Shown piece after piece: positions 1 to 30,691 of a stretch of DNA of 64,000 nucleotides. The position numbers and the translations under genes are program-made. Location: positions 9,876,001 to 9,940,000 of the forward strand of contig NZ_JAPNKC010000001.1 of the NCBI RefSeq assembly GCF_026626705.1, in the 5' to 3' direction. A model generated the notes under the pieces. It saw only the letters and a list, made by a program, of their open reading frames with translations. It was not told where the DNA came from and made no database searches. Numbering within the stretch: the stretch's first letter is position 1; each line of letters opens with the position of its first letter. The stretch is from Pyxidicoccus sp. MSG2. GTDB taxonomy: Bacteria; Myxococcota; Myxococcia; Myxococcales; Myxococcaceae.

Positions 1-2083
1 AGGGGACGGTGTTGACGAGCGTCACCTCGGAGGCGGCGGGCAGCGAGGCGAGCTCCAGCGCGTTGGCGGCGAGCAGCACGGTGCCGCCGCAGGAGAGGGG
101 CGCGAAGAGCTCGAAGACGGAGAGGTCGAAGCAGATGGAGGTGGCGGCCAGGGTGCCCGCGAGCTGCTCACGGGAGAAGGTGCGCAGGGACCAGTCCAGG
201 AAGGCGGTGGAGCTGGCGTGGGTGATGGCCACGCCCTTGGGCCTGCCGGTGCTGCCGGAGGTGTAGATGACGTGGGAGAGATTCTCTGGCACGGCATGGC
301 AGGTGGGGGCGGACGCGGGCCACTGGGAGAAGCTCTCCGGCAGCGCATCCAGGCAGACGGTGCGCAGGCCCTGGGTGTCGAGCTGGAGCGAGGCGAGCAG
401 GCTCTGGTGGGACAGCAGGAGCTGGGCGCCGGAGTCGGAGAGGGTGTAGTCGAGACGGCCGCGAGGGTAGGCCGGGTCGAGGGGGACGTAGGCGCCGCCG
501 GACTTGAGGACGGCGAGGAGGGAGACGACGAGGTCGGCGGTGCGCTCCATGCAGACAGCGACGCGCACCTCGGGGCCGACGCCGAGCGACTGGAGGTAAT
601 GGGCGAGGCGGTTGGCGCGCGCATCGAGCTGCGAGTAGGTGAAGCGCTCGGTTCCGACGACGAGGGCGGTGGCGTCGGGAGTGCGGGCCACCTGCGCGGA
701 GACGAGGTGGGGGATGACGGAGCGCTGGAGGATGGTGCGCGTGTCGTTGAACTCCACCAGCAGCCGGTGGCGCTCCTCGGGCGTGAGCAGGGGGACGGCT
801 TCGAGCACCTGCTCGGGCCGGGCCACGAGGGCCTGCACCAGCGTGAGGAAGTGCTCCACCATGCGCGTGGCGGTGCCTGCTTCGAACAGGTCCGTGTTGT
901 AGCCCAGCGCTCCGCGGAAGCCGTCGGGCGACTCCGAGAGGCTCAGTTCCAGCTCGAACTTGATGGAGGGGTTGTGCACCTCCATCGGGCGCAGCGTCAG
1001 TTCCTGCCTCTGCAAGGGAGTGTTGGGGGTGTTGTGCAGGGCGAAGAGGACCTGGAAGAGCGGGCTGCGGCTCATGTCCCGCGTGGTCTGAAGCTCCTCC
1101 ACCAGCCGTTCGAAGGGCACGTTCTGGTGGGTGTACGCGCCCAGCGCCGTCTCCTTCACCTGCCGCAGCAGTTGGAGGAACGAGGCGCGGCCCTCTACCT
1201 TGGACTGCATGACCAGGGTGTTGACGAAGAAGCCGATGAGCCCTTCGAGCTCACCGCGCTGGCGCCCCGCGATGGGCGTGCCGACGGAGATGTCATCCTG
1301 GCCGGAGTAGCGTGACAGCAGCACCTGGAAGGAGGCCAGCAGCACCATGAAGGGCGTCAGGCCTTCCTTCTGACACAGCGCCTTCACCGCCTCGGAGAGC
1401 TGGGGTGAGAGGCGGACAGGCACGCTGGCGCCGCGGAAGGTCTGCACGGCCGGGCGCGGCTTGTCGGTGGGCAGCTCCAGGGGCGAGTTCCCGGAGCGCT
1501 GCTGGCGCCACCAGGCGAGCTGTGCTTCGAGCACATCGCCCTGGAGCCATTGACGCTGCCAGACGGCGTAGTCGGCGTACTGGAGTGCCAGCGGGGCGAG
1601 TGGCGAAGGCTTGCCGTGAGCGAAGGCGTTGTAGAGCGCGGCGACTTCGCGGATCAGCACGCCCATGGACCAACCGTCGGAGACGATGTGGTGCATGTTG
1701 AGCGAGAGCACGTGCTCTGCCGGGCCCAGCTTCCACAGGCCGGCACGCACCAGCGGGCCGGTAGCGAGGTGGAAGGGCTTCAGCGTGTCTTCGCGCAGCT
1801 GCCGCTCCAACTCCTTCCGAGCGGCCTGGGGTTCCAGGCCACCGAGGTCCACGACGTTGAGCGGCAGCTCGGAGTGTGGAGCGATGAGCTGGAGGGGCTG
1901 GCCCTCGTGCTGGGTGAAGGTGGTGCGCAGCGCCTCATGGCGCAGCACCAGTTCCTCGAAGGCACGGCGCAGGGAGGCCACGTCGAGGGGGCCCTCCATG
2001 CGCATGAAGCGGGGCATGCTGTAGGCAGCGCCGCCGGGCTGGAGTTGGTCGATGAACCACAGGCGCTGCTGTGCGAAGGAGAG
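1..2083 (-). other. NRPS module 10 (C and part of A), possibly Ala
   Basis: The C domain is complete (HHIVSDG near 1690) and the A domain is cut by the window edge after the A3 and A4 regions. The visible pocket residues are D-L-F-N (235, 236, 239, 278), which fits the alanine code DLFNNALTYK. The Cys code DLYNLSLIWK starts similarly and cannot be excluded. The C domain is nearly identical to that of module 6; both follow an Asp module. Confidence 0.6.

Positions 2084-30691: not shown

What the first reader, a model, noticed from the sequence alone, without database searches (positions are those of the whole stretch)
1..30691. Single-polypeptide NRPS of more than 10,000 residues with ten identical-layout modules
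Ten A domains share one uninterrupted frame with no stop, and module pitch varies only from 1052 to 1063 residues with no tailoring domain. A chain above 1.1 MDa is exceptional, and the end is not yet reached.
Basis: seen in the sequence. Interest (0 to 1): 0.7.

Follow-up and report, generated by a model that had tools for sequence, protein, structure and literature searches.

The report
Giant one-gene myxobacterial peptide synthetase
One 45.6 kb gene encodes a complete 15,186-residue enzyme that should build a roughly 14-amino-acid peptide without ribosomes; enzymes this large turn out to be common in this bacterial family, but this one carries a conserved, oddly arranged unit next to a basic amino acid that may make a branch in the peptide.

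Summary
The window's minus-strand frame (base 30691 to beyond base 1) is the first 10,230 residues of an intact 15,186-aa, 1.65-MDa NRPS whose stop lies 14.9 kb left of the window on the same 13.19-Mb contig. It ends in a thioesterase; every active-site motif checked is present, and its domains are under purifying selection against a mostly 90-96% identical orthologue in Pyxidicoccus caerfyrddinensis. No MbtH, PPTase or transporter was found beside it; MbtH and PPTases lie elsewhere in the genome.

The size is not exceptional here. This genome has eight NRPS frames above 10,000 codons (one larger than this), and 22 other genomes of the family show 38 more, up to 17,748.

The layout is uniform only through module 11. 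Then follows T-(83 aa)-A-T-C-(81 aa)-C-A-T: an A-T unit without its own C, and two C domains joined by the folded stump of a deleted A domain. This cassette recurs in at least 20 NRPSs of three related genera. Wherever scorable, it follows an A domain with a basic-residue code (D[LI]ESIG). Its first C is a separate clade (support 100/100). A likely role is attaching an extra residue to that basic residue; a linear reading is not excluded.

The parts
1..30691 (-). Window part (residues 1-10230) of the NRPS gene. The whole gene is genome 9861131-9906691, 15,186 aa; 14,869 bases lie left of window base 1
   Evidence: N-terminus MALTPDQKRARLAELLREK is shared by about 15 other NRPS starts in the family
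27512..30613 (-). Module 1 C-A-T; N-terminal-type C (ERMW clade); A code DVWHVSLVDK (Ser-like)
   Evidence: C clade
24353..27448 (-). Module 2 C-A-T; DALTIAAVCK (Phe-like)
21182..24292 (-). Module 3 C-A-T; DALHLGCLFK (X, hydrophobic)
18017..21130 (-). Module 4 C-A-T; DLTKVGHVGK (Asp-like); A domain replaced by a Glu-type one in the orthologue
14828..17950 (-). Module 5 C-A-T; DLTKVGHVGK (Asp-like)
11654..14761 (-). Module 6 C-A-T; DALHLGCLFK (X)
8495..11602 (-). Module 7 C-A-T; DALWLGGVFK (Val-like); different code (DPFLLGCFVK) in the orthologue
5324..8437 (-). Module 8 C-A-T; DALWLGGTFK (Val-like)
2153..5266 (-). Module 9 C-A-T; DLTKVGHVGK (Asp-like)
1..2086 (-). Module 10 C and most of A; DLFNNALTYK (Ala-like). 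Its end, and modules 11-14 with the cassette and the TE, lie left of base 1 on locus L003 (genome 9861001-9876000): module 11 L003:10841-13924, T-A linker 10592-10840, A12-T12 8891-10591, C12 7499-8824, C-C spacer 7256-7498, C13-A13-T13 4139-7255, module 14 992-4078, TE 134-934, all minus strand

Best explanation
This is a complete, self-contained type I NRPS on one polypeptide: (C-A-T)x11, then A-T, C, C-A-T, C-A-T, TE, with 14 A domains. It probably makes an acidic, mostly hydrophobic peptide of about 13-14 residues (Ser-Phe-X-Asp-Asp-X-Val-Val-Asp-Ala-basic-[X12]-X-Val). The first C domain belongs to a special N-terminal clade, so the peptide is probably N-acylated (inferred). The terminal TE releases it by hydrolysis or cyclisation (inferred). 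Size and single-chain layout are ordinary for Myxococcaceae. The unusual part is the cassette after module 11. A12-T12 has no upstream C, so it looks like an internal loading unit. Its short T-C linker makes T12 the natural donor for C12. The residue loaded just before is predicted to be basic in every scorable case and so may offer a second nucleophile. C12 tends to group with the C domains that accept that basic residue. I therefore think C12 most likely attaches residue X12 to the basic residue held on T11, after which C13 takes the chain from T11 to T13, giving one branch. Shown: gene, domain order, motifs, conservation, the link with the basic code, the C12 clade. Inferred: substrates, acylation, branching. 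The confidence is for the whole statement with the branch; for a complete single-chain NRPS alone it is about 0.97.
For: Complete frame and motifs. Orthologue with conserved order and low dN/dS. No accessory gene shared by the flanks of the two orthologues. Family background of giant frames. Cassette in at least 20 NRPSs of three genera with near-constant linkers (66-84 and 77-82 aa). Preceding code always D[LI]ESIG where scorable (20 of 24 such A domains versus 0 of 242 others; Fisher p 1.7e-26, though rows are not independent). C12 one clade 100/100 with its own residue pattern and intact HHxxxD. C12 groups with the basic-residue C domains in the trees, weakly (89; 77/69; AU 0.93). A-domain stump predicted to fold, other linker predicted mostly flexible. 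Code neighbours DVESIGGVTK (Arg/homoarginine) and DGEDHGTVVK (Lys): PMC12283262.
Against: By plain identity C12 is not closer to the basic-residue C domains than to others (mean 0.53 versus 0.52-0.56), and the grouping support is below accepted levels. The best code match is to Arg, whose guanidine is a poor acyl acceptor. Four D[LI]ESIG modules are not directly followed by the cassette, so the basic residue does not by itself imply it. No product is known. Structure models have moderate confidence (mean pLDDT 67-69).
Confidence: 0.4

Rival explanations
1. Linear reading: A12-T12-C12 is a module in permuted order. C12 moves the chain from T11 to X12 on T12 and C13 then works normally, so the product is a linear (or TE-cyclised) 14-mer.
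For: All domains of the unit are intact and under purifying selection. A12 codes vary like those of ordinary elongation modules. Needs no second nucleophile.
Against: T12 would have to reach the acceptor site of a C domain to which it is tethered by a short donor-type linker (about 22 aa). Does not explain the fixed link with a basic residue or the separate C12 clade.
Confidence: 0.33
2. A12-T12 or C12 is bypassed: X12 is not incorporated and the product is a 13-mer, the extra domains having a structural or gatekeeping role.
For: Both flanking linkers carry clear stumps of deleted domains, as after a recombination accident.
Against: At least 20 copies in three genera keep intact motifs, near-constant linker lengths and, where measured, low dN/dS; an idle domain would decay.
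Confidence: 0.15
3. Assembly artefact: the frame or the cassette comes from mis-joined repeats.
For: Modules are similar to each other, with many exact repeats of 100-267 bp.
Against: Single 13.19-Mb contig without N here; longest exact repeat 267 bp; the orthologue in another species and about 20 other NRPSs show the same cassette layout.
Confidence: 0.03

Closest known systems
Kolossin A synthetase (Photorhabdus; a 15-module, 46-domain, 1.8-MDa NRPS is called the largest known in PMC6262359)
   Same: Single-polypeptide NRPS of similar mass and module number
   Different: Kolossin A is a D/L pentadecapeptide with an N-terminal formyl group from a formylation domain (PMC8949500). No epimerisation or formylation domain was found here; this one has the T-A-T-C-C cassette.
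Myxoprincomide synthetase (MXAN_3779, Myxococcus xanthus; PMC11619377)
   Same: Myxobacterial product whose cluster is a single gene; its giant size is from memory
   Different: A PKS/NRPS hybrid (own knowledge). In this genome the ORF at 12067430 (14,391 aa, with non-NRPS insertions) may resemble it; the window gene has no such insertion.
Orthologue in Pyxidicoccus caerfyrddinensis CA032A (L041, G054:C116)
   Same: TE 94% identical; modules 2-14 collinear, most domains 90-96% identical; same cassette
   Different: A4 of Glu instead of Asp type, A7 exchanged; an N gap near modules 1-2. Product unknown.

Membership tests
Modular type I NRPS | Repeated C, A and T domains on one chain | tested here: met
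Modular type I NRPS | Intact motifs: HHxxxDG in all C, A3 in all A, carrier serine in all T, TE GxSxG | tested here: met
Modular type I NRPS | Each elongation module ordered C-A-T (usual, not obligatory) | tested here: not met
   True for 11 modules and for modules 13-14; not met at A12-T12-C12. Filed as a variant for this reason
Modular type I NRPS | Makes a peptide | not testable with these tools
   Needs expression and mass spectrometry
Kolossin-type giant NRPS | Single chain of more than 10,000 residues ending in a release domain | tested here: met
   15,186 aa, TE at the C-terminus
Kolossin-type giant NRPS | Formylation and epimerisation domains | tested here: not met
   No E domain by position or motif (HHxxxDG throughout); Pfam on six representative stretches found only C, A, T and TE
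Lipopeptide synthetase (starter C domain) | First C domain of the starter subtype using acyl-CoA | tested here: inconclusive
   Falls in a distinct clade of N-terminal C domains (100); the solved CDA synthetase C domain is only a weak match

The most novel reading that the evidence does not exclude
The cassette T-linker-A-T-C-(A stump)-C is a dedicated branching device: an internal loading unit and a specialised C domain put an extra amino acid onto the side chain of a basic residue held on the previous carrier, and myxobacteria have spread this unit through many NRPSs.
Probability: 0.33. Interest if true: 0.7.

Novelty: new variant of a known kind. Interest (0 to 1): 0.42.

Why it matters
It shows that single-chain megasynthetases of 10,000-17,000 residues are routine in one bacterial family, which bears on how such proteins are translated and evolve. 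If the cassette makes a branch, it would be a portable domain set for non-linear peptides, of use in peptide engineering. The orthologue pair, with exchanged A domains at modules 4 and 7 in an otherwise conserved line, is a natural example of A-domain swapping.

Tried and rejected
Size as the surprise: rejected after the family survey. E domain as the reason for two consecutive C domains: rejected, both have the C-type HHxxxDGW motif and C12 lies far from the E clade. C12 derived from the basic-residue module: suggestive only; the A stump scores higher on average with D[LI]ESIG A domains, but single best hits are mixed and identities do not favour it. Naming the basic residue as Lys from memory: weakened by a closer published Arg/homoarginine code. 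Paper searches for the codes and for tandem C domains gave nothing relevant. The bacterial 16S model found no match in the genome, so the organism was placed through its TE relatives. A conserved accessory gene next to the NRPS: none found; flanks are not syntenic with the orthologue.

Full report
Observation. The window is bases 9876001-9940000 of a 13.19-Mb contig in a 13.34-Mb genome. Adding the neighbouring sequence, it ends at 9861131: 15,186 aa, 1.654 MDa, no stop, no N. The start is supported by an N-terminus shared by about fifteen other NRPS starts. Module spacing in the window is 1051-1063 residues. Nine modules are complete in the window; the tenth is cut by the edge.

Is it real and functional? 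GC at the third codon position is 0.87-0.94 in every block, and all motifs checked in C, A, T and TE domains are present. The longest exact internal repeat is 267 bp. A P. caerfyrddinensis CA032A contig holds an orthologue with TE 94% identical (L041; apparently the same contig as G054:C116). Modules 2-14 are collinear and mostly 90-96% identical. dN/dS is 0.03-0.55 in all domains but the exchanged A4 (0.67); A7 is also exchanged. The orthologue has an N gap around modules 1-2, so that part cannot be compared.

Is it exceptional? Not in this family. One search lists eight NRPS frames above 10,000 codons in this genome, one (15,973) longer than this. The TE search of 96 genomes of the family lists 38 further frames of 10,000 codons or more in 22 other genomes, up to 17,748 (my count from the table; frames are stop to stop and may include hybrids). 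The literature I could read names a 15-module, 1.8-MDa NRPS as the largest known (PMC6262359).

Surroundings. Upstream and divergent lies a kelch/galactose-oxidase-like protein, then Wza, Wzc and glycosyltransferase genes of a polysaccharide locus. Downstream lie an M4 metallopeptidase, a CHAT-domain protein and, further off, a C39-peptidase ABC transporter and a radical SAM protein. The downstream flank is not shared with the orthologue. One MbtH gene (635.8 kb) and three PPTase-family genes lie elsewhere. The NRPS is thus a one-gene cluster that would rely on shared helpers (inferred).

Substrates. The ten-residue codes, read against published lists (PMC12283262) and general knowledge, suggest Ser, Phe, X, Asp, Asp, X, Val, Val, Asp, Ala, basic, X12, X, Val. 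X (DALHLGCLFK) is near DAMHLGCTFK, which that paper discusses in its Leu/Ile/Val section as also taking Hpg. The basic code DLESIGTVIK is nearest to DVESIGGVTK (Arg/homoarginine) and less near to Lys codes. These are predictions.

The cassette. Left of the window, T11 is followed not by a C domain but by an 83-aa linker and A12-T12, then C12, an 81-aa spacer, and C13-A13-T13. The first linker ends in the C-terminal stump of a C domain; the spacer holds the N-terminal part of an A domain. So two deletions would explain the layout: one C domain, and one A-T pair. The first linker has an invariant PxxPLExxA motif and the spacer an invariant core. The spacer is predicted to fold (pLDDT about 77-87), the linker to be mostly flexible with one short helix. 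A search with the linker found 34 places in 18 genomes of three genera of the family and none outside the family among 195 genomes sampled across the phylum (stricter cut-off). In about 20 NRPSs that I could lay out, the order is the same.

Link with a basic residue. Where the preceding A domain could be scored, it always carries D[LI]ESIG: 20 of 24 such A domains are followed by the cassette, none of 242 others. Related copies are not independent, so the p-value is only indicative. Of the four exceptions, one has an internal TE after the next module, one lies one module ahead of a cassette, one is near a frame break, one is ordinary.

Phylogeny. C12 domains form one clade (SH-aLRT 100; bootstrap/SH-aLRT 100/100), with positions that set them apart from other C domains. 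C domains before D[LI]ESIG modules form another clade (92/95), apart from N-terminal ones. The two group together in the best careful tree with weak support (77/69), and holding them together is not rejected (AU 0.93). Plain identity does not favour this. In ordinary modules the nearest non-orthologous C domain shares the acceptor class in 92 of 203 cases (9% expected by chance), so C phylogeny carries some acceptor information.

Mechanism. A12-T12 resembles a loading unit, and T12 is placed to donate to C12. The basic residue on T11 is the plausible acceptor, the flexible linker giving T11 the reach to C12 and then C13. This predicts one branch. The linear reading (A-T-C as a permuted module) and bypass remain possible. 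None of this was tested biochemically.

Organism. The closest named relative found is P. caerfyrddinensis. PMC10435759 describes P. parkwaysis SCPEA02 as nearest to that species; whether the window comes from it was not tested.

Verdict. A confirmed, complete giant NRPS; a new member of a known kind in size and logic, and a new variant because of the cassette, whose description I did not find in the papers searched. Ten searches of an open-access library cannot establish that it is undescribed.

Noticed in passing
genome C1:1794454-2076878 (loci L020, L005-L019): About 280 kb almost wholly made of plus-strand NRPS ORFs in tandem (up to 15,967 aa, several with their own TE): an unusually large NRPS island.
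   Followed up: partly
genome C1:1970238-2018141 (15,967 aa): An NRPS with a thioesterase-like domain inside the chain (residues about 5891-6146 of the frame), followed by an ordinary non-starter C domain and nine more modules, one module after a D[LI]ESIG module.
   Followed up: partly
genome C1:4646904-4657619 (L094:6904-17619): Smallest cassette NRPS of the genome, C-A-T-A-T-C-C-A-T-TE, 3,571 aa: a convenient test system.
   Followed up: partly
genome C1:2022150-2053618: Two NRPS ORFs overlapping by 49 bp; the first ends within a C domain, suggesting a frameshift or sequencing error in one longer NRPS.
   Followed up: no
genome C1:12067430-12110605: 14,391-aa ORF with long non-NRPS insertions (by eye ketosynthase-like, methyltransferase-like and luciferase-like sequence); may be related to myxoprincomide synthetase.
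   Followed up: no
window 31298-34021 (+): Kelch/galactose-oxidase-like protein divergent from the NRPS; the first start codon of the frame looks too far upstream, as only residues 496-890 match families.
   Followed up: no
L002:1863-3110 (-): Radical SAM protein near a C39-peptidase ABC transporter (L002:3309-5624), possibly a separate RiPP locus about 15-17 kb downstream of the NRPS.
   Followed up: no
genome: The bacterial 16S rRNA model gave no match in the held, 100%-complete genome; the rRNA genes may be masked.
   Followed up: no
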